Shown: in pieces, positions 10,331 through 30,166 of the stretch
Position numbering within the stretch: position 1 is the first letter of the stretch
How the letters are laid out: each line of letters opens with the position of its first letter
Origin: a virus
Length of the DNA stretch: 30,166 nucleotides
Strand: one strand, 5' to 3'
IMG/VR virus record: IMGVR_UViG_3300020392_000650
Coordinates: 1 to 30,166 of that record
Notes under the pieces: generated by a model
The model's input: only the letters and a program-made list of their open reading frames with translations
What the model was told of the DNA's origin: nothing
Databases searched by the model: none
Position numbers and translations under genes: made by a program

Positions 10331-13300
10331 ATGCCAAACGTAACAGGAGATAATTTAACTTTTAATATAGACGGGATTGCAAATAATCAAATCCTTGTTT
10401 ATAATGCCAGTCAGGGCATTTTTGTTGCACAAGACAGTTTATCCACAGATGCCAATGCCGCAATAGTAGGTGGTGGTAATGTAGGTACTTCAGGCGTAGG
10501 TGTATTCTCAGCCAAAGATGGCACACAATTAAAGTTTAAGAAGATTGCAGGTTCAGGTGCAACAAGTGTTAGTGAATCAGCAAATGTTATTACAATATCT
10601 TCAACAGCCTATGTTCAACCAACTCCAGTAGTCTCACACAAAATAAATGGAAATGCCTACGTTATATCAGGTAGGAACTTTGGTAACAATGCAAACATAC
10701 AGGCTTTTGCAGGTATTTTAAATAATGCAAATTATCCTACTAACAGTCAAAGTGCAGGATTTGATGCTAAGACAAGATTTGTAATTGGTTCAAATGATCA
10801 AACTGACGTTGAAGTTAATTCACAACATAGTATTTTATTAAGAACAAAAAGCACAGATGGACATATTGAAGTTAGAAGTGCTAACAGTACAGTATTTTAT
10901 GTAGGTAGTAGTTCAAGTACATCACCAGCATTAAAAATAAATTCTAACAAAAGTACAACTTTTGCTAACGCATTTACACTTCCTTCATCAGATGGTACTA
11001 ATGGTCAAGTATTAGTTACTAATGGTTCAGGTGCAGTTAGTTGGACAACTTTAAGTACAGGCGGTATTACTGCAAGTCAACTTCAAGCCAACTTAGCAAA
11101 CTATATTCCTAAAAATGCAACTAGCACACCAGACGTAACAAATGCTTACGATATTGGTAGTAGCAGTTTAAAATATTTAAACATACATGCTAGTAGATTT
11201 CAAGGTGTGGCAGACTTTGCCACCAAATTAGGTAGCAGTGGTCAGAACCTATCATACAGTACATTAGCAAATGCATTAATTAGCACAAATAATCTAAGTG
11301 ATGTTGCTAGTGTATCTACTGCTAGAACAAATTTAAGTGTTTACAGTAAAGCAGAAGTAGACACTAAACTAGATACTGCTCAATTACAGAACGCAATAGG
11401 AACTGTTACTTCAGTAGGTTCCGCAAATACAATTACTGCAAACAGTTCTACAACCAATATTAGATTTGAAGGCGGAACTGGTATAAATGTTAATCAATAT
11501 AGCAGTAACAATACAATACAATTTTCAAAATCAGATGCCACTACAGGTGTTTTCAAAACTATTGATGTAGACGGTACAGCCGTTATTGCAGATACTAATA
11601 CAGATACACTTAATTTAAGAAGTGGTTCTAATGTAAGTTTTGTAACTAATACAGGCACTGATACAATTACAATAGATGCAACATTAGACGATGCTTCTAT
11701 TGACAAATATACTAAAGGACAAGTTAATACATTATTAAGTGCAAATGTTTCAGCATTAAGATTTTATAAAACAGTAGCAGGTGACACAGGTTCAACTGCC
11801 GCTAGTGCCAAAGATGATACATTTACTATTACAGGTGGCGATGGTATTACTACAGCAGTTACAGGTGATACTGTTACAATTACTAATACCCAATTAAACA
11901 CAGGTATATTTAAAAATATAGGTGTTACAGGACAAAACACCATTATAGCAGAAAACAATCAAGATACATTAAACTTTGAGGCTGGTGCAGGTATATCAAT
12001 AACAACTGACACTAATTTAGATAAAGTTACTATTACTAATACAGGCAGTGGCGGAGGTGGTGGTGTATCCGAAGCATTTAAAAATGTAGCAGTACAAGGC
12101 GGTAATACAGTAGTAGCCAACGTAGCCGCAGATACATTAACATTTGTAGCAGGTAGTAATGCAACTATTACTGCTGATAGCAGTAACCAAACAATTACAA
12201 TTGATTCTACACTATCTGGATCAGGAACAAAAGGTGAACCAGGAGTAGCCGGCCCGGCAGGTAATGATGGATCAGATGGAGCAAAAGGACAAAAAGGTGA
12301 AGTAGGAGAGGCTGGCACAACAGGTCCGGCAGGACCACAAGGTACAGCAGGTAGTTCTGGTGCATCAGGTCCGGCTGGAGATAAGGGTGATAAAGGTGAG
12401 CAAGGTGCTCAAGGAACACAGGGTTCAGCAGGTGATAAAGGGGCTCAAGGTGCTCAAGGAGACGTAGGAGCAACTGGACCAGGTGGAAGTGCTGGAGATA
12501 AAGGTTCAAAAGGAGAAGTAGGTCCACAAGGTGCTCAAGGTGTTGCTGGAGATAAAGGTGATACAGGATCACAAGGACCACAAGGAACCGCAGGTGTTAC
12601 TGGACCACAAGGTAATGTAGGACCAGCAGGTGACAAAGGAGAGCCAAGTTCAGTAGCAGGACCACAAGGACCTTCAGGTAATGCTGGAGACAAAGGACAA
12701 AAAGGAGCAACAGGTGTTACTGGCCCAGGTGGTAGTGCTGGAGACAAAGGTTCAAAAGGTGAACCAAGTGCAGTCGCTGGACCACAAGGACAAAAAGGAG
12801 ACACTGGCGCACAAGGACCACAAGGAGATACAGGTGCAACTGGACCAGCAGGAGCAGATAGTACAGTAGCAGGTCCAACAGGTCCACAAGGTAATACAGG
12901 TCCAGCAGGTCCACAAGGAGATAAAGGACAGAAAGGAGCCGGTGGCGATAAAGGACAAAAAGGAGAATTAGGTGTTCAGGGTTCAACAGGACCTCAAGGC
13001 GCACAAGGTGATAAGGGTGAACAAGGTGCCCAAGGACCAGCAGGTGGTACAGGCCCAGTAGGACCACAGGGTAATGTAGGTGCAACTGGACCAACAGGAC
13101 CGGCTGGGGATAAAGGAACAAAAGGTGATTATGGTGGCCCAACTGGACCAACAGGGGATAAAGGACAAAAAGGAGAAATTGGTCCTCAAGGAAATTCAGG
13201 TAATACTGGACCAACTGGACCAGAAGGTGACAAAGGTAACGCAGGTAACACTGGACCAGCAGGACCAGGCGGTAGTGCTGGAGATAAAGGACAGAAGGGT

Positions 13301-13813
13301 GAACCTAGTTCAGTAGCAGGACCGGCCGGACCAGCAGGGGACAAAGGTGCTCAGGGTGATGCTGGTGCAGGTGGATCAGCAGGAGACAAAGGACAAAAAG
13401 GTGAAGCAGGCGGTGGCGGTGGAGGCTCAGGTGCCGCTATAGAAAGATTAAAATTAAATTATGACACATCAGGCAATTTAACAAGTGTTTCAGACACTAC
13501 ATCAGGCATTAATGCAACAACAATTACTAGTGCCGCAGGTGCAGAACTTGAAATACAATTTACTGGATTTAGTTATCCTCCAGGAGCAATCATGTCATAT
13601 GGTTATAACTATCCACAAAACAAGTATAACTTTAATGCTATTACAAGTGATTGGACTACGAGAACAATAGACGGCGGTGGTTCAAGTGGTTCACCAACAG
13701 CATTTGGAAGTTTCTCAAATATAGACTTAAAAGTATCTGAGGCGATAACAGGAGCCAGTAGAAGTTTTGGTCAAGCAACACATGCCTGGCTAACATTTAT
13801 TATGGCGGACTAA
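10331..13813 (+). CDS. Fibre protein with collagen-like Gly-X-Y domain
   Basis: This 1160-residue late protein is probably a tail fibre or other virion appendage. Residues about 1-400 are Ser/Thr/Asn-rich and beta-like, including the short motif [17 protein letters not shown] found in many phage fibres. About residues 405-630 hold four tandem copies of a repeat of about 45-50 residues, each starting F/Y-K-x-(I/V) and ending ITI(T/D). Residues 632 to about 1033 are a nearly unbroken collagen-like Gly-X-Y run, rich in GDKG, GQKG, GPAG and GPQG, that should form a trimeric triple helix. A Gly-rich hinge and a globular C-terminal tip of about 120 residues (about 1040-1160) follow, which could bind the host surface. 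Phage collagen domains are known as trimeric stalks. Confidence 0.9.
11547..12215 (+). repeat. Four tandem protein repeats before the collagen stalk
   Basis: Four diverged copies of a unit of about 45-50 residues begin near 11550, 11765, 11908 and 12077. Each has the form FK-x-I/V, an Asn/Thr-rich turn, DTLN/T-F, and a final ITI(T/D) strand. They are likely a beta-structured shaft made by internal duplication. Confidence 0.65.
12224..13430 (+). repeat. Collagen-like Gly-X-Y coding repeat
   Basis: About 130 consecutive Gly-X-Y triplets are coded here, with a few insertions of PSSVAG or PSAVAG type that break the phase. At DNA level the region is locally repetitive (GGACCACAAGG, GGAGATAAAGG, GGACAAAAAGG variants). 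Such sequence can change length by slippage or recombination. Confidence 0.88.
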
Positions 13814-18946: not shown

Positions 18947-19689
18947 TGAATATTAAGAAAGCAAAAACAGGTAAGTGGTTCGAGGATCAATATAATCTCA
19001 AAGACTTACTGGCACTTTCTGTAGCAGTCAATAGAATCAATGATGGCTATATCAAAAAAGATGCAAACATCGAAATTGACGACAACGATGTGCAAGTAAA
19101 GTTACCTAATCTTTTTATTATTAACAATCATCTTAAAATAGAAAAGTTCAAAACAACTGCGATTAAGAATACACTTGAAACTTACTATGATGACGTAGAA
19201 GTTTTAGAAAGCGATTCAGAAGATGTTGATCATATGATTAGATACTTCAAAGGTCTTAGTCTTAAAGCAATCAAAAGAAATATTAGTGATTTTGAAAAGA
19301 ACATACTTAGTATCATTAAAAAGGACTATGTTCAATATAAAGACATTGGTATAATTGCTAGTTTACCTAGTGTGTTTGCTAACGGACAAAAGCAACGAGC
19401 ATTTAACAAGTATGAAAAACAACTTGCTAAAAGCAGTAATCATGTAGGTACATTACATGAACGTGATTCTTTTGAAGTAGAAATAATACATAAGAAATAC
19501 ATTTGGAGAAGTAGCAGTTATCTTTATGTTGCTAAAGAGGACAACACTAACTTGGTTAAGTTCTTTTCTTCTCTAGGTGATGTAAATGTAGGTGACACAA
19601 TAAAAATTACTGCCTATGTGAAAGACCATACTAAAGGTAAAATATCAGGTGGTAATGAAACTTACTTTAACAGAGTTAAGATTTCTTAA
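18946..19689 (+). CDS. Hypothetical protein with OB-like C-terminal domain
   Basis: In this 247-residue protein the first 150 residues are charged and largely helical. From about 165 to the end there is a beta-rich segment with the pattern VGTLHERDSFEVEI ... YLYVAKEDNTNLVKFF ... VGDTIKITAYVKDH ... NETYFNRVKI. This resembles a small OB-like domain that occurs at the C-terminus of many phage proteins near replication genes, and a nucleic-acid-binding role is plausible. The gene shares an early promoter with the upstream orphan and ends in a 14-base convergent overlap with the minus-strand oxygenase gene. The family name is not known to me. Confidence 0.65.
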   Translation: MNIKKAKTGKWFEDQYNLKDLLALSVAVNRINDGYIKKDANIEIDDNDVQVKLPNLFIINNHLKIEKFKTTAIKNTLETYYDDVEVLESDSEDVDHMIRYFKGLSLKAIKRNISDFEKNILSIIKKDYVQYKDIGIIASLPSVFANGQKQRAFNKYEKQLAKSSNHVGTLHERDSFEVEIIHKKYIWRSSSYLYVAKEDNTNLVKFFSSLGDVNVGDTIKITAYVKDHTKGKISGGNETYFNRVKIS

Positions 19690-20341
19690 GAGTCGCAATC
19701 AAATAAATCATTATTCTTTGCATATGGTCCGGTTCTTTAGTTAGGTCCGGACAACTATGCCAACCTTTACTACTTCTTGGTAAAATATATGCTCTATTAG
19801 GAACATAGGGCATTTGGTGTCCCATTTTAACCAATGTACTATCCTCCCCAAATGTTGGATCTAATCCTTCATCAATTGCTTGATCATATGCACAATCAAC
19901 CTCCCAAAACATTGTGCCTGTATGAGCAAATTCATCATCCATTGCTAATGAATGCTGGACTGTATAATAATAAGATGGGTGGTCAACGTGGACATCGTGT
20001 ACAGAATTTTTATTTGTATCCATCCACATAAAAGGTTGGTTTACATTTACATTGGAGGACATATTCATTACATTACCTATTGCATCTAAAACCTCTTGAC
20101 TTCTGTAAACGTATTCAGTAGCAATTCTTAATGCTTCTTGTTGTTCATTTGGTCCTATGTGATATCCGTGCCTGCCTGGTAACTCTTCGTTTTGCCATTC
20201 ATTTGGAACACATTGTTGAACTTTTTGATAAAGTTCTGGGTGCATAAAGTTTTCTATGTCCATTACATGTAACTTTTCAGAATTCACAGGAGGCGTATTT
20301 ATTATTCTATCTACGGTCCATTGCGTGTATTCTGTTGACAT
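19676..20341 (-). CDS. 2OG-Fe(II) oxygenase-like protein
   Basis: 2-oxoglutarate/Fe(II) oxygenases hydroxylate proteins, nucleic acids or small molecules and are common in T4-like marine phages. The 221-residue protein shows the iron-binding triad His118-x-Asp120 and His195 (in KGWHS), and a 2-oxoglutarate-binding Arg209 (QRIMIYL) at the usual distances. The substrate cannot be read. It is the only minus-strand gene in the right half of the window. A late octamer on the minus strand ends 6 bases before its ATG, and no Shine-Dalgarno is present, so it is probably a late gene translated from a leaderless mRNA. Confidence 0.72.
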   Translation of the reverse strand: MSTEYTQWTVDRIINTPPVNSEKLHVMDIENFMHPELYQKVQQCVPNEWQNEELPGRHGYHIGPNEQQEALRIATEYVYRSQEVLDAIGNVMNMSSNVNVNQPFMWMDTNKNSVHDVHVDHPSYYYTVQHSLAMDDEFAHTGTMFWEVDCAYDQAIDEGLDPTFGEDSTLVKMGHQMPYVPNRAYILPRSSKGWHSCPDLTKEPDHMQRIMIYLIATLKKS

Positions 20342-22817: not shown

Positions 22818-23075
22818 ATGAGTCTGACTACAGAAAAAGTACATCTATTTGACATGCAATGGACCGATGATGGAGATTATGAGCATATCTTTGAACAGAG
22901 GTTACATGACTGCATGGCGCCTTTCTTTAGTTATGAGTATGCTACATTTACAAAAGAAATAGACTTTACAGGCTCTTATCAACCTACTGCAAGTATATAC
23001 GCACAATTTGTTTGTGTAGCAGATAAAATACAATTTATGTTAAAATATTCGGATAAAATAAATGAGTTACGTTGA
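22818..23075 (+). CDS. Hypothetical small protein upstream of DNA polymerase
   Basis: This 85-residue soluble protein is rich in Phe, Tyr and Asp. I chose the ATG at 22818 because the predicted transcription start falls on it; an earlier ATG at 22794 lies within the promoter spacer and would not be transcribed. It overlaps the start of the polymerase gene by 14 bases, suggesting that it is translationally coupled to gp43. No motif is recognised. Confidence 0.68.
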   Translation: MSLTTEKVHLFDMQWTDDGDYEHIFEQRLHDCMAPFFSYEYATFTKEIDFTGSYQPTASIYAQFVCVADKIQFMLKYSDKINELR

Positions 23076-25770
23076 TGCAGTCTTTGAACAAAACAAAGGC
23101 ATAGTCAGAGTTGTCGAACGTACTAAACAAGGTGATCGCAAGATTATTGATCATCCTATGCGATACTACTTCTATGTAGATGATCCTAAAGGTAAGCAAC
23201 ATAGTGTATATGGAGATCCTGTTAGCAAGATAACAGCAAACAACTGGAAGGACTTTAAACGTAATGTTGCATTATATCAAAACAAACAAACATATGAAAG
23301 CGATCTTAAGCCTGTAAATAGAGTATTAGCAGAGCAATACTTAGGAGAAGATGCTCCAGACTTACACAAATGCTTTTTTGATATTGAGGTTGACTTTGAT
23401 CCTGAAAGAGGATATTCAGATCCTAAAGATGCTTTTATGCCAATTACAAGTATAAGTGTTTATTTAGATTGGATAGGTAAAATTGTATGTTTAGCAGTTC
23501 CTCCTAGAACTTTGCAATGGAGTCAAGCACAAAAGATAGCAGACAAAGTAGGCGATACAATACTTTTCAAAGACGAAGCAGGTATGCTAGATGCTTTCTT
23601 AACACTTATAGATGATGCAGATATACTTAGTGGTTGGAACAGCGAAGGATATGATATTCCTTATACTGTAAATAGAATTATCAAAGTGCTAGGCAAAAGT
23701 GAAACAAGACGTTTATGTTTGTTAGACAAAAATGTTATTAAGAGAGAATATATAAGTCATGGTAGAGAAACAATAACATATGATCTAGTAGGCCGTGTAC
23801 ACTTAGACTATTTGCAACTTTATAGAAAATACAATTATGAAGAACGCCATAGTTATAGACTAGACTACATAGGAGAGATGGAAGTAGGTGAGAAGAAGGT
23901 TGTGTATGATGGTAGTTTAGATCGATTATATAATCATGACTTTGAATTGTTCTTAGAATATAACATACAAGACACAATGCTACTTAAGAAGATTGATGAC
24001 AAATTACAGTTTATTAGTTTAGCAAGTGAGATAGCACATCAGAATACAGTATTGTTGCCAGTAACAATGGGTGCGGTACAAACAATTGACCAAGCAATAA
24101 TCAATGAAGCACACAGGAGAGGATTCGTAGTTCCTGATAGAAATAGAACTAAAGAGTCAGACAACCCTTGGGGGCATACAGTAGCAGGTGCCTATGTGGC
24201 ATTTCCTAAAAAAGGAATGCATGAGTGGATAGGAAGTATGGACTTAAACAGTCTGTATCCTAGTGTAATTAGAGCACTTAACATGGCACCTGAAACTATT
24301 GTTGGACAACTAAGACAAGAATACACAGACAAAGAAATAACAGAAAAAATGCAAATAGAGAAAAAGTCATTTGCAGATGCTTGGTTAGGCAAGTTTGGTA
24401 GTAATGAATATGAAATGGTTATGGCCAAAGATATTGATAAGCCACTTATATTAGATTTAGAAGACAAAAGAGAAATAAACGTTAAGGGTGCAGACATTTA
24501 TAATATGTTGTTTAACAGTGATGAGCCTTGGTGTATTAGTGCAAATGGTACAATATTTAGAACTGATGTACAAGGTATTATTCCAGGACTATTAGAAAAG
24601 TGGTATGCTGAAAGACAAGAACTACAAGCAAATAAAAAGAATGCAACTGATCCAGAAGATATAGCATTTTGGGATAAAAGACAATTAGTTAGAAAAATTT
24701 TACTTAACAGTACATATGGTGCTATTTGTAATCCAGGCAGTAGATTCTTTGATCACAGGATAGGACAAAGCACAACACTCACAGGTCGTGCTATTACTAA
24801 GCACATGGGAGCAGAGACAAACCGTTTGTTTACTGGAAACTATGATCATGTAGGAGATACTATTGTATATGGTGATACAGACTCTGTATATTTTACTGCT
24901 GATAAAATAAGCAAAGACCAAGATGTAACATTAGATATGGATAAAGCAATTACACTTTATGATAACATATCAGATCAAGTTAGTGATACATTTCCTGCAT
25001 TTGCAAAGAATTCTTTTAATGTGCCAACAAGCATAGGAAAAGTATTAAAGGCAGGTAGAGAAGTTGTAGGTAGAGCAGGAATCTTTATTACTAAAAAAAG
25101 ATATGCAATCAACTGTTTAGACATAGAAGGCTATCAACCAGAAGGCGGCAAACTAAAAGTAATGGGTCTTGATCTCAAAAGATCAGATACGCCTGAGTTT
25201 GTACAAGACTTCTTAAGTGATATATTAGGGCAAACACTAAACGGCGATGGTGAATCAAGTGTGTTAGCAAATGTTAGAGAGTTTAAGAAAGAATTTAAAG
25301 CAATGGAACCTTGGTTAAAAGGTATGCCTAAACGTGTTAATAACTTAACATACTACACAGAAGCATATAACAAAGCCTTTAAAATGGCAAACAATAATAG
25401 TCTATATAGGCTAGAAAGAATGAAAGAAGAGAATACTAAGGTAATGATACCTGGACATGTAAGAGCAAGTATAAATTGGAACAACATGCTCAAAGCAAAC
25501 AGTGATCAATACAGTATGCAAATCACTGATGGTATGAAAGTGATCGTGTGTAGGCTGAAATCCAATGCTATGGGTTATACAAGCATAGCATATCCTACAG
25601 ATGAAATGCATATACCAGATTGGTTTAAACAACTGCCCTTTGATGAAGATGCTATGGAGAAAGCAGTTGTAGATAAGAAAGTAGAAAACTTATTGAATGT
25701 ACTTAAATGGGATTTGTCAGCGACAGATACTACAAATACATTTCATAGTTTATTTGAATTTGATGAATAA
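23062..25770 (+). CDS. 43: Family B DNA polymerase (T4 gp43-like)
   Basis: This is the replicative polymerase with 3'-5' proofreading. It has 902 residues, close to T4 gp43 (898). The exonuclease I motif FDIEVDF is at 106-112. Polymerase motif A DLNSLYPS begins at Asp394, motif B KILLNSTYG is at 545-553, and motif C YGDTDS has catalytic Asp605/Asp607. The last residues, SLFEFDE, resemble the C-terminal clamp-binding peptide of gp43, fitting the sliding-clamp gene that follows. The ATG lies inside the small upstream gene, with which it is probably coupled. It appears complete, without intron or split, which is worth noting as some T4-like polymerases are divided. Confidence 0.97.
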   Translation: MSYVDAVFEQNKGIVRVVERTKQGDRKIIDHPMRYYFYVDDPKGKQHSVYGDPVSKITANNWKDFKRNVALYQNKQTYESDLKPVNRVLAEQYLGEDAPDLHKCFFDIEVDFDPERGYSDPKDAFMPITSISVYLDWIGKIVCLAVPPRTLQWSQAQKIADKVGDTILFKDEAGMLDAFLTLIDDADILSGWNSEGYDIPYTVNRIIKVLGKSETRRLCLLDKNVIKREYISHGRETITYDLVGRVHLDYLQLYRKYNYEERHSYRLDYIGEMEVGEKKVVYDGSLDRLYNHDFELFLEYNIQDTMLLKKIDDKLQFISLASEIAHQNTVLLPVTMGAVQTIDQAIINEAHRRGFVVPDRNRTKESDNPWGHTVAGAYVAFPKKGMHEWIGSMDLNSLYPSVIRALNMAPETIVGQLRQEYTDKEITEKMQIEKKSFADAWLGKFGSNEYEMVMAKDIDKPLILDLEDKREINVKGADIYNMLFNSDEPWCISANGTIFRTDVQGIIPGLLEKWYAERQELQANKKNATDPEDIAFWDKRQLVRKILLNSTYGAICNPGSRFFDHRIGQSTTLTGRAITKHMGAETNRLFTGNYDHVGDTIVYGDTDSVYFTADKISKDQDVTLDMDKAITLYDNISDQVSDTFPAFAKNSFNVPTSIGKVLKAGREVVGRAGIFITKKRYAINCLDIEGYQPEGGKLKVMGLDLKRSDTPEFVQDFLSDILGQTLNGDGESSVLANVREFKKEFKAMEPWLKGMPKRVNNLTYYTEAYNKAFKMANNNSLYRLERMKEENTKVMIPGHVRASINWNNMLKANSDQYSMQITDGMKVIVCRLKSNAMGYTSIAYPTDEMHIPDWFKQLPFDEDAMEKAVVDKKVENLLNVLKWDLSATDTTNTFHSLFEFDE

Positions 25771-25859: not shown

Positions 25860-26603
25860 ATGATAAAAGATATTTTTAAAGACATACTAAGGCATACTCA
25901 CGCCTTAGGTTTTATTGAAATGGTTAAGATAAGCGGTACTGCTGAGAGTACAACTATTGAGGCCATGGATGCAGACAAGACTGTTATATTACAAGGTAAA
26001 CTACATAATCCAGTAGCAGACTTTGTAGATCATACAGTTGGTCTTAGCAGAATGAGTGTACTACATGGTTACTTACAGTTTCCTGGATTTACAAGTGAAG
26101 ACGGTAATGTAGAAGTAGTTACACAGGCCCGTAATGGCGTAGACATTCCTGTAGAAATAAGTTTTTCAAGTGCTGAAGGACATTCAGGTAGTTATAGATT
26201 TATGTTAGCAGATGTAATTAATCAGCAACTAAAGTCTGTGACAATGAAAGACATTCCATGGGACGTAACTATTGTGCCTACACAAAAGAACTTAAAGGAT
26301 ATTAACAACTTTAACGGCATACTAGGTGGGTTCGAACCTGTCTTCTCCCCAACTACTGAAAGTGGAGCATTGTACTTTCATATAGGTGAAGGTGCTGGAG
26401 ATAAAGTAAAGTTACCTATTAACAATAATGTTGATGGCGAACTATCAGGTAATTGGAAATGGGAAACAGACAAAACATTAAGTATTCTTAGATTAAGCGA
26501 TAGTGCTAATTGTACAGTTAGTTTTGCAAATGCAGGTGCTATGCAAATTGTTATAGATAGTGGCTTAGGTGAATACACATATATACTACCTGCTAAGAGT
26601 TAA
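25860..26603 (+). CDS. 45: Sliding clamp (T4 gp45-like)
   Basis: gp45 is the trimeric ring that holds gp43 on DNA and, in T4, also activates late transcription. The 247-residue protein has the overall pattern of marine-phage gp45: an N-terminal helix, a central segment VADFVDHTVGLSRMSVLHGYL resembling the T4 clamp's domain 1, a KNLKDINNF helix before the second domain, and a C-terminal GLGEYTYILPAKS strand typical of clamp interdomain edges. It lies 89 bases after gp43, as expected for replication partners, and has a GAGGTG ribosome-binding site. Sequence similarity to T4 gp45 is weak, so the call combines pattern and context. Confidence 0.7.
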   Translation: MIKDIFKDILRHTHALGFIEMVKISGTAESTTIEAMDADKTVILQGKLHNPVADFVDHTVGLSRMSVLHGYLQFPGFTSEDGNVEVVTQARNGVDIPVEISFSSAEGHSGSYRFMLADVINQQLKSVTMKDIPWDVTIVPTQKNLKDINNFNGILGGFEPVFSPTTESGALYFHIGEGAGDKVKLPINNNVDGELSGNWKWETDKTLSILRLSDSANCTVSFANAGAMQIVIDSGLGEYTYILPAKS

Positions 26604-26605
26604 AC

Positions 26606-28147
26606 ATGACAGAAGACTTAGGAAAGAAGCACCAGGATTGGGCAGTTTACCTGCCTGCTATTAGTGGCTTCTATGTAACACAACTACAAAAAATGCATGC
26701 CAATCCAGATGAATGGAGATGTCCTGAAGGTTTTGAAAAGGGCACAGAAGGTATGAATTTCTTAGATCCAGAGAATAGTTATTATCACTATCCATGGGGA
26801 CTATATTCAGGTGGTCACGCACACTTAGATCCTGTAAAAAGCGACGAACGTGAGCCAATGATTCAAGGTAGAGATCGTAGCAAAACAATGATACTTGGTG
26901 ACTCAGGTGGTTTCCAGATTGCTACAGGTGTTCTTAAAATGGATTGGGCAAACGCAAAAGATCCTAATGACCCTGCTAGACAAGAGTTGTGTGGCAAAAT
27001 ACTAAAATGGTTAGAACACACATCGGACTGGGCAATGACCCTAGATGTTCCTGCTTTTGCGGCTGTAGGTAAACTAAGTGAAAAAACAGGATTAACAGAA
27101 TTTCAAGACACACTAGATGTTAGTTTATTAAATTTAGACTACTTCATGAGAAACAGAACTCCAGGTGCCACAAAGTTTCTAAATGTGTTAAGTGGCAGTA
27201 ATGAAGAAAATAGCAGAACATGGTACAATGCTGTAAAGCATTTTTCCAATAAAAGTTTTGTGCAAGAAGCATACGGTGATGATAGTAGAACGTTAGAAGG
27301 CTACGCATTTGCTGGTATCAATATGAAACACATGTATAGTGTGTTAAGTTTATTATTAGATCTCAGAGATGATAATTTACTTGAAGGAAAAGATTGGATA
27401 CACTTCTTGGGTACTGGCCGCCTTAATTGGGCATGTCACCTTACCAGTATTCAAAGACAGTTGAGAAAGCATGACAATCCTAATATTACACTCTCATTTG
27501 ATGCGGCATCACCTTTTGTTAATACAGCATATGGCCAAACCTACACACACAATGAGTACAGAGCCAAGCGATTCGGATACTTTATGGATAGAGCATTCGA
27601 TAACAAAGATCTCAAAGGATCTAAGATGCCTATGCCTTTTGCACACTCCCCTATAATGAGTAGACTAACAGTCGGTGATATATGTGTTCTAGGACACGGA
27701 GACCTTAACAGAAATGGTAAGGAAACAAATACTAGTTGGGACACATTAAGTTATGCATTATACATGGGACATAGTGTTTATAATCATATTACAGCAGTTC
27801 AAGAAGCAAATAGACTTGCTGATATGGAAAAACATAGAACACCAACGCATTGGAAGAATTGGAAGAAAGTAAAAGGCAATAGTGTAGCAAATGAAACATC
27901 ACCATATGTACCAGGTACTATATTGATGTTTGATACTTTTGCTGAAGAAGTATTAGATCCAAATAATCCTAATGCAAGGCAAATGCTAGAAGACAATAAA
28001 GAGTTCTTAAAAGAATTAAGTTTCTCAGACGGTAGTGCTGAACAATCAACATTTGGTTCATTGTTTGAAACAGATGATTATGATGCAGGTGATAGTGAAT
28101 CTGATATGCAAGAAGATATTATGAGAGCAGACTTTGAAGGAGAATAA
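26606..28147 (+). CDS. TGT/DpdA-like guanine transglycosylase
   Basis: Proteins of this fold swap a guanine base for a 7-deazaguanine. Tgt acts on tRNA, while DpdA acts on DNA and in phages protects against restriction. The 513-residue protein has the base-pocket motif GDSGGFQI (98-105, Asp99), a conserved Asp147 in LDVPA, a glycine-rich region GYAFAGI (232-238), IHFLGTGRLN (265-274), and FDAASPF with Asp299 where Tgt has its nucleophile in FDC-P-TR. The zinc-binding Cys cluster of bacterial Tgt is absent, which favours a DNA-acting DpdA-type enzyme. An acidic tail (about 470-513) is extra. No queC/D/E or folE is in the window, so the deazaguanine would come from elsewhere. It begins 2 bases after the clamp gene. 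Confidence 0.8.
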   Translation: MTEDLGKKHQDWAVYLPAISGFYVTQLQKMHANPDEWRCPEGFEKGTEGMNFLDPENSYYHYPWGLYSGGHAHLDPVKSDEREPMIQGRDRSKTMILGDSGGFQIATGVLKMDWANAKDPNDPARQELCGKILKWLEHTSDWAMTLDVPAFAAVGKLSEKTGLTEFQDTLDVSLLNLDYFMRNRTPGATKFLNVLSGSNEENSRTWYNAVKHFSNKSFVQEAYGDDSRTLEGYAFAGINMKHMYSVLSLLLDLRDDNLLEGKDWIHFLGTGRLNWACHLTSIQRQLRKHDNPNITLSFDAASPFVNTAYGQTYTHNEYRAKRFGYFMDRAFDNKDLKGSKMPMPFAHSPIMSRLTVGDICVLGHGDLNRNGKETNTSWDTLSYALYMGHSVYNHITAVQEANRLADMEKHRTPTHWKNWKKVKGNSVANETSPYVPGTILMFDTFAEEVLDPNNPNARQMLEDNKEFLKELSFSDGSAEQSTFGSLFETDDYDAGDSESDMQEDIMRADFEGE

Positions 28148-28151
28148 GATT

Positions 28152-28370
28152 ATGTGTGGTGGATATACAGGAGAGCATGAAGTTGATTCATACTCTGGTA
28201 CATATACTTACGAAGGGCATGATGTTAATTTTACTGTAATGGAAAATGGTATGACTATGGAAATACAAGAAACCAAAGACGGTAAAGTTATGCCTAAGAA
28301 AGTTGTTGATATCGTAGAAGCAATAGACTATCAAGATCAACTTATTGGTTGGGGATATGTCGGTTTCTAA
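28152..28370 (+). CDS. Small hypothetical protein
   Basis: This 72-residue protein starts at ATG 28152, which has AAGGAG at a good distance; an in-frame ATG at 28134 would overlap the transglycosylase gene and has a poorer site. It contains short beta-type repeats (SYSGTYTYEGHD) and acidic residues. The gene lies 4 bases after the transglycosylase and overlaps the following oxygenase gene by 14 bases, so it is coupled with both. No family recognised. Confidence 0.65.
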   Translation: MCGGYTGEHEVDSYSGTYTYEGHDVNFTVMENGMTMEIQETKDGKVMPKKVVDIVEAIDYQDQLIGWGYVGF

Positions 28371-28995
28371 ATTGTTCAATGAAAAAGTTGGCGATCAACA
28401 TATTGCATTGGTCGATAACTTTTTTGATGAGGATATTTTACAAAATTGGAAATACTACTATGAGCATAAGGCAGAGTTTAAATTTGCCGCTGAGGAAGTT
28501 GAAGATGGTGATGCATTGTTTTGCCATTGTTTAGAACTTCCAACAGTAGAAAGCATATTTAGAATGTCAGAAACAATTATGCCATATGTACAAGAGTATA
28601 ATGATCTTTATGATAGTAACATAAGATATACAGATATGTGTAGAGCACATGTGAATTTGTTTCAAGTAATAGATAAATTTGCAGGGCACACAGATAGCAA
28701 AGAACAAGGTATTGTAATACTTTGGTTTGCTAATCCTTATTTTGAGGATACAGGAGGAGGCTTTTACTTAGGTGAGGGCGACAACCAAATACTTATTGAA
28801 AACAAGTATAATAGGTTAGTTGTATTTCCTGCTACAATGTGGCATAAAGTACAACAAGTTTCTGACAGAAATTCAGTTAGGCTTTCTGTTTATTTAGGTT
28901 TTGCACAATTTGAAGTTGGCGAATCTAGAAGTAGAAACTTTAAACAATCAAATTTAATTAATAAATTTACAAAACAGGTGGCAGTACATGGATAG
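28357..28995 (+). CDS. 2OG-Fe(II) oxygenase (prolyl-4-hydroxylase-like)
   Basis: From ATG 28357 the protein has 212 residues and the complete signature of this superfamily. The iron ligands are His111-x-Asp113 (GHTD) and His163 (MWHKV), and the 2-oxoglutarate-binding Arg175 is in NSVRLSVYL. The double-stranded beta-helix strand pattern lies between them (VILWFANPYF, GGGFYLGEG, RLVVFPA). The N-terminal 90 residues probably form a helical support. An in-frame TTG at 28345 is less likely as start. Adjacent to the TGT-like gene, it could oxidise a modified base, but a protein substrate is just as possible. Confidence 0.82.
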   Translation: MSVSKLFNEKVGDQHIALVDNFFDEDILQNWKYYYEHKAEFKFAAEEVEDGDALFCHCLELPTVESIFRMSETIMPYVQEYNDLYDSNIRYTDMCRAHVNLFQVIDKFAGHTDSKEQGIVILWFANPYFEDTGGGFYLGEGDNQILIENKYNRLVVFPATMWHKVQQVSDRNSVRLSVYLGFAQFEVGESRSRNFKQSNLINKFTKQVAVHG

Positions 28996-29494
28996 AGAAG
29001 GACACGAAGACGTAAAGTTTTTTATAGGTACTGAAGTAGAGCATACTCCTGCCTATGGGCAAAAGACTTTGTTTGTAGTTGGGTATCAACCACCAAACGA
29101 AATACTTGCTAGAGCATTAAACAATGGTTGTCCGCATATTTATTTAGGTGCCAATCAAAGTTTCAATCCACCAACTGATAAAGATTGGACAGGTTGGGAT
29201 GATATGATTATGAATATGCTTGAAGAAGGTATATGGGTTACATTAGACTTTGATGTGACCTTAGCAGAAAGAGTATTAGAATCTGGTTGGACTGAGTTTA
29301 AAACATTTATACCAATGATAAGTGTTAAGTTACCTTACATTAATCAATTTAACTACAATGCTACACTTAAACTTGACGACAAAGACTTTAAAGCAACTAA
29401 TCCAGGTGTATGGTGTCATAGTTTACACGAATTACAGAAGAGAAAAAAATTTACTGATTGGACAAAGTACACTCAGGATGAAATTATTGAATAG
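28988..29494 (+). CDS. Hypothetical protein
   Basis: This 168-residue soluble protein has alternating strand/helix segments (DVKFFIGTEVEHT near the start, TLFVVGYQPPNEIL, CPHIYLGAN, IWVTLDFDV, TFIPMISVKL), which suggests a TIM-barrel- or Rossmann-like alpha/beta fold. No cofactor motif is visible. It overlaps the oxygenase gene by 8 bases and is preceded by AGGTGG as ribosome-binding site. As part of the TGT-oxygenase run it may share their pathway. Family not known to me. Confidence 0.72.
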   Translation: MDREGHEDVKFFIGTEVEHTPAYGQKTLFVVGYQPPNEILARALNNGCPHIYLGANQSFNPPTDKDWTGWDDMIMNMLEEGIWVTLDFDVTLAERVLESGWTEFKTFIPMISVKLPYINQFNYNATLKLDDKDFKATNPGVWCHSLHELQKRKKFTDWTKYTQDEIIE

Positions 29495-29502
29495 GGAGCA
29501 TT

Positions 29503-29949
29503 ATGAAATATAATTTTAAAGTACAGGCACCACTAGCCACATTTTTATTAAGAATACCACTCAGTGTTATGTTCTTTCAGCAAGGCTTTATGAAGTTAAA
29601 TGGAGATATGGGAGCAGAAGCAGAGATGTGGAACTTGCCATACATTGTTTGGTGGTTCGTTACATATGGTGAAATAGGTAGTGCTATTGGATTAATAGTA
29701 GGAGGTGTAATTGGAGTTATACCTTGGCACAATTGGTTTAGTAAATTCTATCAAACAGTTATTTGGAACTTAGGTGACTTACTAACAAGGTTCAGTGCAA
29801 TCACAATGACAGGTGTTGTTACTGGAGTTTTATGGTTGATGAAACCTGCAAGTTTATTAGATGTAATTCTATATGATTATTTGCACATTAGTTTATATGT
29901 AGTTGCATTATATTTTGCTCTTAGAGGAAACGCAAAGTACGGAGTATAA
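29503..29949 (+). CDS. DoxX-like integral membrane protein
   Basis: DoxX/DoxD-type proteins are small four-helix membrane proteins, some of which are parts of quinone-linked oxidoreductases. The 148-residue protein has four hydrophobic segments (about 11-27, 48-70, 86-110 and 118-141). It has the typical N-terminal LLRIPLSVMFFQQGFMKL (the family often has an R and a G-K here) and a Glu-Ile-Gly motif in helix 2 (YGEIGSAIGLI). Ribosome-binding site GGGAG. It lies directly before an alternative oxidase gene, with the next start 3 bases after its stop, which supports a link to quinol oxidation. Confidence 0.72.
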   Translation: MKYNFKVQAPLATFLLRIPLSVMFFQQGFMKLNGDMGAEAEMWNLPYIVWWFVTYGEIGSAIGLIVGGVIGVIPWHNWFSKFYQTVIWNLGDLLTRFSAITMTGVVTGVLWLMKPASLLDVILYDYLHISLYVVALYFALRGNAKYGV

Positions 29950-29952
29950 TGA

Positions 29953-30166
29953 ATGAGAGATTGGTTAGCATTAAGTATGACAAAGTTTTTCCGTTTCATG
30001 GCGGATACTTTTTTTGCTAAAAGATATGGACATAGAGCAGTTGTATTAGAAACAGTTGCAGGTGTACCAGGAATGGTTGCAGGTATGTTGTTACACATGA
30101 AAAGTCTGCGTAAAATGAAAATGGGTTATGGACCTGACATTAGAGAAATGTTAGCAGAAGCAGAAA
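29953..30166 (+). CDS. Alternative (ubiquinol) oxidase, N-terminal part
   Basis: Alternative oxidase passes electrons from ubiquinol straight to oxygen without pumping protons; the plastoquinol form (PTOX) is known from cyanophages. The frame runs off the right edge of the window, so only the first 71 residues are visible. They contain the family hallmark [18 protein letters not shown] (about 24-41), in which the Glu is a di-iron ligand, followed by [10 protein letters not shown] and a MLAEAE segment that matches the region of the second Glu ligand. I chose the ATG at 29953, which has CGGAG about 8 bases upstream; ATG 29949 is in another frame that stops after about 23 codons. The downstream His and Glu ligands cannot be seen here. 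Confidence 0.9.

What the first reader, a model, noticed from the sequence alone, without database searches (positions are those of the whole stretch)
26606..29494. Possible new DNA base-modification cassette: TGT/DpdA-like enzyme, small protein, 2OG oxygenase and orphan
Four overlapping or near-touching genes follow the replication pair gp43-gp45. The first keeps Tgt-fold catalytic residues (DSGGFQ, nucleophile Asp299) but lacks the tRNA-type zinc cluster, as in DpdA DNA transglycosylases. A 2OG-Fe(II) oxygenase and two unknown proteins are translated with it. Together they could insert a 7-deazaguanine and then oxidise it, giving an anti-restriction base. No preQ0 genes are in the window, so the base might come from host or elsewhere on the phage. 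The link between the genes is inferred from context.
Basis: partly seen in the sequence, partly recalled or inferred. Interest (0 to 1): 0.7.

Follow-up and report, generated by a model that had tools for sequence, protein, structure and literature searches.

The report
Jumbo-phage 7-deazaguanine base-modification module

Summary
The 513-aa ORF (26606-28147) is a divergent TGT-fold enzyme. Its model (pLDDT 90) matches only TGTs at the top of the PDB, the catalytic aspartates are invariant in 44 diverse homologues, and the tRNA-type zinc motif is absent in 204/204. It is profile-related to phage DpdA2 but forms its own subfamily.

The window stops 2 kb after it. In relatives the module continues: 168-aa orphan, GT4-like glycosyltransferase (GT), 143-aa QueD-resembling protein (q143), phosphoribosyltransferase, FolE, QueE. 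Of 39 dereplicated phages, 36 carry GT, 36 q143 and 35 the orphan. 77/80 orphan loci contain the TGT; the other three lie at contig ends.

DpdA2 replaces the TGT in otherwise similar modules in cultured phages, and bacterial mobile elements pair the TGT with GT and a queuosine-precursor-type transporter. QueC is undetected in nearly all long genomes carrying the module.

So the TGT/DpdA idea and the orphan's involvement are supported, and the precursor genes are on the phage. The 2OG oxygenase and the 72-aa protein are clade-specific extras. Best model: FolE/QueE make 7-carboxy-7-deazaguanine, the TGT inserts a derivative into DNA, and GT decorates it. DNA target and glycosylation are inferred. 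Testable in PA5oct-group phages.

The parts
23062..25770 (+). Family-B DNA polymerase (gp43-like); conserved upstream neighbour, closest to jumbo-phage polymerases
   Evidence: best cultured match Sinorhizobium jumbo phage Phosso (48%); polymerase upstream of TGT in 29/32 dereplicated phages
25860..26603 (+). Clamp-like protein (phrog_12062), conserved immediate upstream neighbour
   Evidence: upstream of TGT in 30/32 dereplicated phages
26606..28147 (+). DpdA-like TGT-fold guanine transglycosylase, new subfamily (core)
26900..26917 (+). Codons for DSGGFQ (Asp99, equivalent to Asp102 of Z. mobilis Tgt)
   Evidence: invariant in 44 homologues
27044..27046 (+). Codon for invariant Asp147 (equivalent to Asp156 of Z. 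mobilis Tgt, base recognition)
   Evidence: motif position
27500..27502 (+). Codon for invariant Asp299 in SFDAASP (predicted nucleophile, equivalent to Asp280)
   Evidence: hhalign aligns it to FDCVMPT of E. coli Tgt and SYDS of DpdA2
28152..28370 (+). 72-aa small protein; clade-specific, not core
   Evidence: essentially only in loci with TGT of at least 88% identity
28357..28995 (+). 2OG-Fe(II) oxygenase-like protein (HTD...H); optional passenger
   Evidence: missing in L102 and about half of the closest relatives
28988..29494 (+). 168-aa orphan (p168), core partner of the TGT; alpha/beta fold without a significant PDB match
29503..29949 (+). DoxX-like membrane protein in the variable slot; not part of the module
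   Evidence: PF07681 E 1.1e-7
29953..30166 (+). Start of an alternative-oxidase gene cut by the window end; not part of the module
   Evidence: homologue L102:4284-4877 matches PF01786 at 8.7e-69

Best explanation
The window holds the front end of a phage-encoded 7-deazaguanine nucleic-acid modification module in a jumbo phage. The 513-aa protein is a DpdA-like guanine transglycosylase of a separate subfamily. Proposed order of events: FolE, a QueD activity (host or phage) and QueE, encoded about 9 kb downstream in close relatives, make 7-carboxy-7-deazaguanine. Without QueC, the pathway continues from there, possibly through the 143-aa QueD-resembling protein. The transglycosylase exchanges this base for guanine in replicated phage DNA. 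A GT4-like glycosyltransferase, with a partner role for p168, then decorates it. Shown computationally: TGT fold and catalytic site, the gene linkages, the near-absence of QueC in long genomes with the module, and exchange with DpdA2. Inferred: DNA as target (about 0.8), 7-carboxy-7-deazaguanine as branch point (about 0.6), sugar on the base (about 0.45). The 2OG oxygenase is not a core part.
For: Fold: pLDDT 90; all 46 PDB matches with E <= 0.001 are TGT family; viral matches include nt-1 DpdA2 at E 1e-9. Profile match to DpdA2: 92.9%, E 3.8e-7; 97.7%, E 2e-12 with bacterial homologues, catalytic motifs in register. No CxCxxC in 204/204. Linkage: of 39 dereplicated phages GT 36, q143 36, p168 35; 38 have FolE, QueE or q143 in the fetched flank, and the 39th, Phosso, has q143-GT-FolE-QueE at another locus. 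Whole records: FolE 33/50, QueE-like 35/50. Reverse linkage 77/80. Swap with DpdA2: ACP17 QueD-FolE-p168-DpdA2-GT-q143-QueE; X1 and BUCT-ZZ01; contigs L221-L228. TGT homologue beside QueF, QueC, a preQ0-type transporter and FolE in Vibrio phage 2.275.O. Bacterial elements: TGT with GT and Vut_1/TIGR00697 transporter. QueC (PF06508) not detected in complete PA5oct, ACP17 and Phosso nor in most contigs of 99-385 kb with the module, but present in nt-1 and 2.275.O.
Against: No nucleoside has been measured in any phage with this subfamily, as far as I could find. Phage gene order is inherited, so part of the linkage is shared ancestry rather than function. q143 is not statistically a QueD homologue (hhalign 6%). 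GT has no known acceptor, and epimerase and other sugar genes nearby could serve something else. 2.275.O has the TGT without GT, q143 or p168. Two contigs (G029, G040) carry divergent QueC-like proteins together with the module. DpdA2 of nt-1 gave only 0.02-0.11% modified G (PMC6884629). Most contigs are fragments, so absences are weak evidence.
Confidence: 0.72

Rival explanations
1. The transglycosylase and the FolE/QueE genes modify tRNA (host or phage) rather than DNA, changing translation during infection.
For: Closest solved folds are tRNA TGTs; phages with such genes have been read as tRNA-modifying (PMC9025141); no nucleic-acid target has been tested.
Against: The tRNA-type zinc motif is missing in all members. 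DpdA2, linked to modified DNA in nt-1 (PMC6884629), takes its place in the same modules. Genes directly follow the DNA polymerase and clamp-like gene, as in CAjan, whose DpdA is essential for DNA modification. PMC6884629 found no queuosine-specific enzymes in phages.
Confidence: 0.15
2. The DNA base is a plain 7-deazaguanine such as 7-carboxy-7-deazaguanine or 7-deazaguanine; the glycosyltransferase and epimerase serve another purpose and are only neighbours.
For: q143 occurs beside or near FolE in cultured phages without a detected GT homologue (phiST, RHph_I1_18, Ahp1, Bakedbeans); 2.275.O has the TGT without GT. From memory (Cui et al. 2023, not held): such unglycosylated bases are known in phages.
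Against: GT stays in the module in 36/39 phages, stays with DpdA2 in ACP17, X1, BUCT-ZZ01 and most of L221-L228, and overlaps or adjoins the TGT in unrelated bacterial elements.
Confidence: 0.3
3. One reading: 7-deazaguanine insertion followed by oxidation by the 2OG oxygenase, with the small protein as a partner.
For: The four genes are adjacent and the 2OG site residues are present.
Against: 2OG is absent from about half of the closest relatives, from 80/80 p168-seeded loci and 79/80 q143-seeded loci; the slot instead holds alternative oxidase, DoxX-like or other genes.
Confidence: 0.04
4. The TGT-like protein has lost transglycosylase activity and works as a structural or binding protein.
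For: Very low sequence identity to known TGTs (11-15%) and no significant family match.
Against: Asp99, Asp147 and Asp299 and neighbouring motifs are invariant over 44 diverse members; linkage to precursor-making genes.
Confidence: 0.03

Closest known systems
Phage DpdA2 (Vibrio phage nt-1 YP_008125322; Hutinet et al. 2019, PMC6884629)
   Same: TGT fold, DSGG and nucleophile-Asp motifs in register, folE neighbours; in ACP17, X1, BUCT-ZZ01 and most of L221-L228 DpdA2 sits with the same GT and usually q143
   Different: Window subfamily is about 500 aa, is not found in the nt-1, 9g, CAjan or 7-11 genomes by a 44-member profile, and carries p168; nt-1 uses QueC and lacks detectable p168/GT/q143
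Phage DpdA of 9g/CAjan/Rosebush type
   Same: Function class: inserts 7-deazaguanine in phage DNA; in CAjan the gene lies next to DNA polymerase and processivity factor
   Different: About 300 aa in CAjan, no detectable profile match, canonical preQ0 route with QueC
Bacterial and archaeal tRNA-guanine transglycosylase (Tgt, arcTGT)
   Same: Fold and catalytic residues
   Different: CxCxxC zinc site absent, extra C-terminal region, phage context
T4-type DNA glucosylation (alpha-GT/beta-GT)
   Same: A glycosyltransferase decorating a modified base after replication would be the analogous logic
   Different: Here the base would be a 7-deazaguanine, not hydroxymethylcytosine; no DNA activity of this GT has been shown

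Membership tests
DpdA (phage 7-deazaguanine DNA transglycosylases, general) | TGT fold with both catalytic aspartates | tested here: met
DpdA (phage 7-deazaguanine DNA transglycosylases, general) | Genomic association with 7-deazaguanine precursor genes (folE, queD, queE, queC) | tested here: met
   folE and queE yes; queD only in PA5oct and long contigs; queC generally undetected
DpdA (phage 7-deazaguanine DNA transglycosylases, general) | 7-deazaguanine found in phage DNA and lost on gene deletion | not testable with these tools
   needs LC-MS and a mutant; shown for CAjan in PMC6884629, not for this subfamily
DpdA2 subfamily | Direct sequence similarity to nt-1 DpdA2 | tested here: not met
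   profile finds nothing in nt-1; remote profile-profile homology only
DpdA of 9g/CAjan type | Sequence or profile similarity | tested here: not met
DpdA3/DpdA4 (Cui et al. 2023, recalled) | Sequence similarity to members of those subfamilies | not tested
   paper not held. A search of Campylobacter phage CP220 gave only a chance-level hit in a scaffold gene; whether CP220 carries DpdA3 is memory only
tRNA-guanine transglycosylase (Tgt) | CxCxxC zinc motif | tested here: not met
   0/204 versus present in E. coli Tgt
QueD (for q143) | Profile similarity to PTPS/QueD | tested here: inconclusive
   hhalign 6%, PF01242 in 1 of 24 at E 0.084; invariant H16, H42, H44 and E112 resemble the zinc triad and Glu
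QueE (downstream radical SAM) | QueE profile match and SAM-cluster cysteines | tested here: met
   TIGR04508 E 4e-11 as best NCBIfam match, below the equivalog cut-off; CxxxC...C[DN][ST] motif in 66/81

The most novel reading that the evidence does not exclude
A widespread QueC-free phage pathway places a glycosylated derivative of 7-carboxy-7-deazaguanine (or a related non-nitrile 7-deazaguanine) in DNA, using a new DpdA subfamily, p168, q143 and a GT4-type glycosyltransferase; related TGT, transporter and GT cassettes exist in bacterial mobile elements.
Probability: 0.4. Interest if true: 0.85.

Novelty: new variant of a known kind. Interest (0 to 1): 0.64.

Why it matters
7-deazaguanine modification of phage DNA is known, but a transglycosylase subfamily in hundreds of mostly uncultured phage contigs, joined to a conserved glycosyltransferase and two uncharacterised proteins and mostly lacking QueC, would mean a large unmapped part of phage DNA chemistry. 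It is directly testable in the cultured PA5oct-group phages (PA5oct, Paride, Callisto, MIJ3, about 287 kb), Acidovorax phage ACP17 and Sinorhizobium phage Phosso. It could also affect sequencing, restriction and defence studies in those phages.

Tried and rejected
Near-identity DNA search in phages: nothing. PDB sequence searches with TGT, p168 and q143 profiles: only chance hits. QueC hits in window relatives: a 333-aa-frame hit is another PP-loop enzyme resembling NAD synthetase (my reading); only L070 and its 32% homologue in G040 look QueC-like. CP220 hit (E 0.03) lies in a scaffold gene. p168 fold search: best E 0.042, not significant. Reading p168 as a QueE fragment or TGT subunit: no evidence. 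Idea that q143 is the CDG decarboxylase (DpdL) named in Cui et al. 2023: memory only, paper not held. Comparison with a broad Tgt set failed on a handle rule. Papers: none found in the library that report PA5oct base modification.

Full report
Observation. The four ORFs exist where stated and are packed like an operon behind a family-B DNA polymerase and a clamp-like gene. The 513-aa product has DSGGFQ at residue 99 and SFDAASP at 297; Asp99, Asp147 and Asp299 are invariant in 44 diverse homologues. The CxCxxC zinc motif of tRNA TGTs is absent from 204 of 204 homologues of at least 430 aa, while E. coli Tgt shows it. No curated family recognises the protein, but Pfam TGT equally fails on the known phage DpdAs. 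The DNA polymerase is closest to those of jumbo phages (Phosso 48%, Atu_ph07, 2.275.O), so the 30-kb window, which is all that is held of this virus, is probably a small fragment of a very large genome.

What the enzyme is. An AlphaFold2 model from 44 homologues has pLDDT 90. The 46 PDB matches with E <= 0.001 are all TGT family (bacterial Tgt 3.6e-6, archaeal arcTGT 1iq8, eukaryotic QTRT2). Among viral models the named matches include an Achromobacter phage Motura transglycosylase and the nt-1 protein that is DpdA2 (E 1e-9). Profile comparison with a DpdA2 alignment gives 92.9%, E 3.8e-7, rising to 97.7%, E 2e-12 when bacterial homologues are added, with DSGG, QG, G-A-x-G, HxLG and S-[FY]-D motifs aligned. 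A 44-member profile finds nothing in nt-1, 9g, CAjan or Salmonella phage 7-11. It is thus a DpdA-like transglycosylase outside the DpdA types that could be tested here.

What it works with. The window ends 2 kb downstream. In L102, a relative with 92% TGT identity, the order continues: 65-aa, 168-aa orphan, alternative oxidase, 408-aa GT4-like glycosyltransferase (PF00534 E 1.5e-4), 143-aa protein (q143), NAD epimerase, phosphoribosyltransferase (PF00156 1.4e-11), FolE, QueE. Over 39 dereplicated phages with at least 6 kb downstream, GT is found in 36, q143 in 36, the orphan in 35, QueE in 27, phosphoribosyltransferase in 22, FolE in 21 (flanks are mostly cut at 8-9 kb, so these are lower bounds). 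Whole-record searches give FolE in 33/50 and a QueE homologue in 35/50. Seeding the search with the orphan instead, 77 of 80 loci contain the TGT; the other three have the orphan within 0.8 kb of the contig start. Among 50,697 phage records the orphan is found only in the 11 PA5oct-group records and the two ACP17 records. In PA5oct it lies about 28 kb from the TGT, so the link is not only local synteny.

Swaps that argue for function. Acidovorax phage ACP17 has QueD-FolE-orphan-DpdA2-GT-q143-QueE: the same module with a DpdA2 in place of the window's enzyme. Xanthomonas phage X1, Synechococcus phage BUCT-ZZ01 and contigs L221-L228 combine DpdA2 with GT and, in most of them, q143. L420 and L457 place q143 before a protein with a DNSAFE motif that I read as 9g/CAjan-like DpdA (by eye). 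Vibrio phage 2.275.O has a remote window-type TGT with QueF, QueC, a vitamin/preQ0-type transporter and FolE. In several Alphaproteobacterial loci (L235, L239, L255, L262, L267) a relative of the TGT sits beside the GT and a Vut_1/TIGR00697 queuosine-precursor-type transporter, near XerD-like recombinases in some.

QueC. PF06508 finds no QueC in the whole genomes of PA5oct, ACP17 or Phosso, nor in most contigs of 99-385 kb with the module, but finds it clearly in nt-1 and 2.275.O, which lack detectable orphan, GT and q143 homologues. The relatives of ACP17, Menderavirus, have QueC in the cluster with their transglycosylase (PMC9025141) and show no orphan, GT or q143 hit. Two contigs (G029, G040) are exceptions with divergent QueC-like proteins. 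The simplest reading is that the pathway leaves the preQ0 route at 7-carboxy-7-deazaguanine, or borrows host QueC. q143 has invariant His16, His42, His44 and Glu112, reminiscent of QueD, but profile comparison does not prove homology.

The 2OG gene and small protein. Within the window's own clade the slot between TGT and orphan or GT varies: 2OG in the window, L006-L008, L010, L011, L016 and L042; none in L002-L005, L009, L012, L014, L015, L019, L035, L041 and L043. 2OG is in 0/80 orphan-seeded and 1/80 q143-seeded loci. They are passengers or lineage-specific tailoring at most.

Mechanism and confidence. Involvement of the TGT in 7-deazaguanine nucleic-acid modification: about 0.95. DNA rather than tRNA: about 0.8, from the DpdA2 exchange, the missing zinc site and the replication-gene context. 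QueC-free branch: about 0.6. Sugar on the base: about 0.45. No measurement exists for any phage with this subfamily in the papers I could search; a 2026 jumbo-phage review mentions only predicted deazaguanine incorporation (PMC13282480). The limits are fragmentary contigs, shared ancestry behind part of the synteny, and the unavailability of Cui et al. 2023, which named further DpdA subfamilies and enzymes (memory).

Noticed in passing
L234-L288 (genome contigs), e.g. L267:7252-12078, L239:8500-11997: Compact relatives of the TGT lie in Alpha- and Betaproteobacterial chromosomes beside XerD-like recombinases and large uncharacterised proteins; some also have the GT and a Vut_1-type transporter. 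Looks like a bacterial mobile element with a 7-deazaguanine cargo.
   Followed up: partly
window 29953-30166; L102:4284-4877: A phage-encoded alternative oxidase (PF01786, E 8.7e-69 in L102) sits in the variable slot of this clade, next to a DoxX-like protein in the window.
   Followed up: partly
L420:6992-8582, L457:6983-8238: q143 followed by a 287-289 aa protein with a DNSAFE motif resembling 9g/CAjan-type DpdA, in FolE/QueE/phosphoribosyltransferase clusters: a possible third transglycosylase type using the same module.
   Followed up: no
L431:3914-11761: q143-GT-FolE-phosphoribosyltransferase-QueE module behind a clamp-like gene with no recognisable transglycosylase in 14 kb.
   Followed up: no
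L070:1474-2076 (G029) and G040:3997-4566: 200-226 aa QueC-like PP-loop protein with a C-terminal Cys cluster in two contigs that also carry the module.
   Followed up: partly
window 19676-20341, minus strand: 221-aa protein with HVD...H...R spacing suggests a second, divergent 2OG oxygenase on the opposite strand; no significant family match.
   Followed up: no
window 10331-13813: 1160-aa protein with a long collagen-like G-x-x repeat region, probably a tail fibre.
   Followed up: no
PA5oct 221902-222648 (L069:10921-11667): The clamp-like neighbour (phrog_12062 homologue) is annotated in PA5oct as a structural protein detected by mass spectrometry.
   Followed up: no
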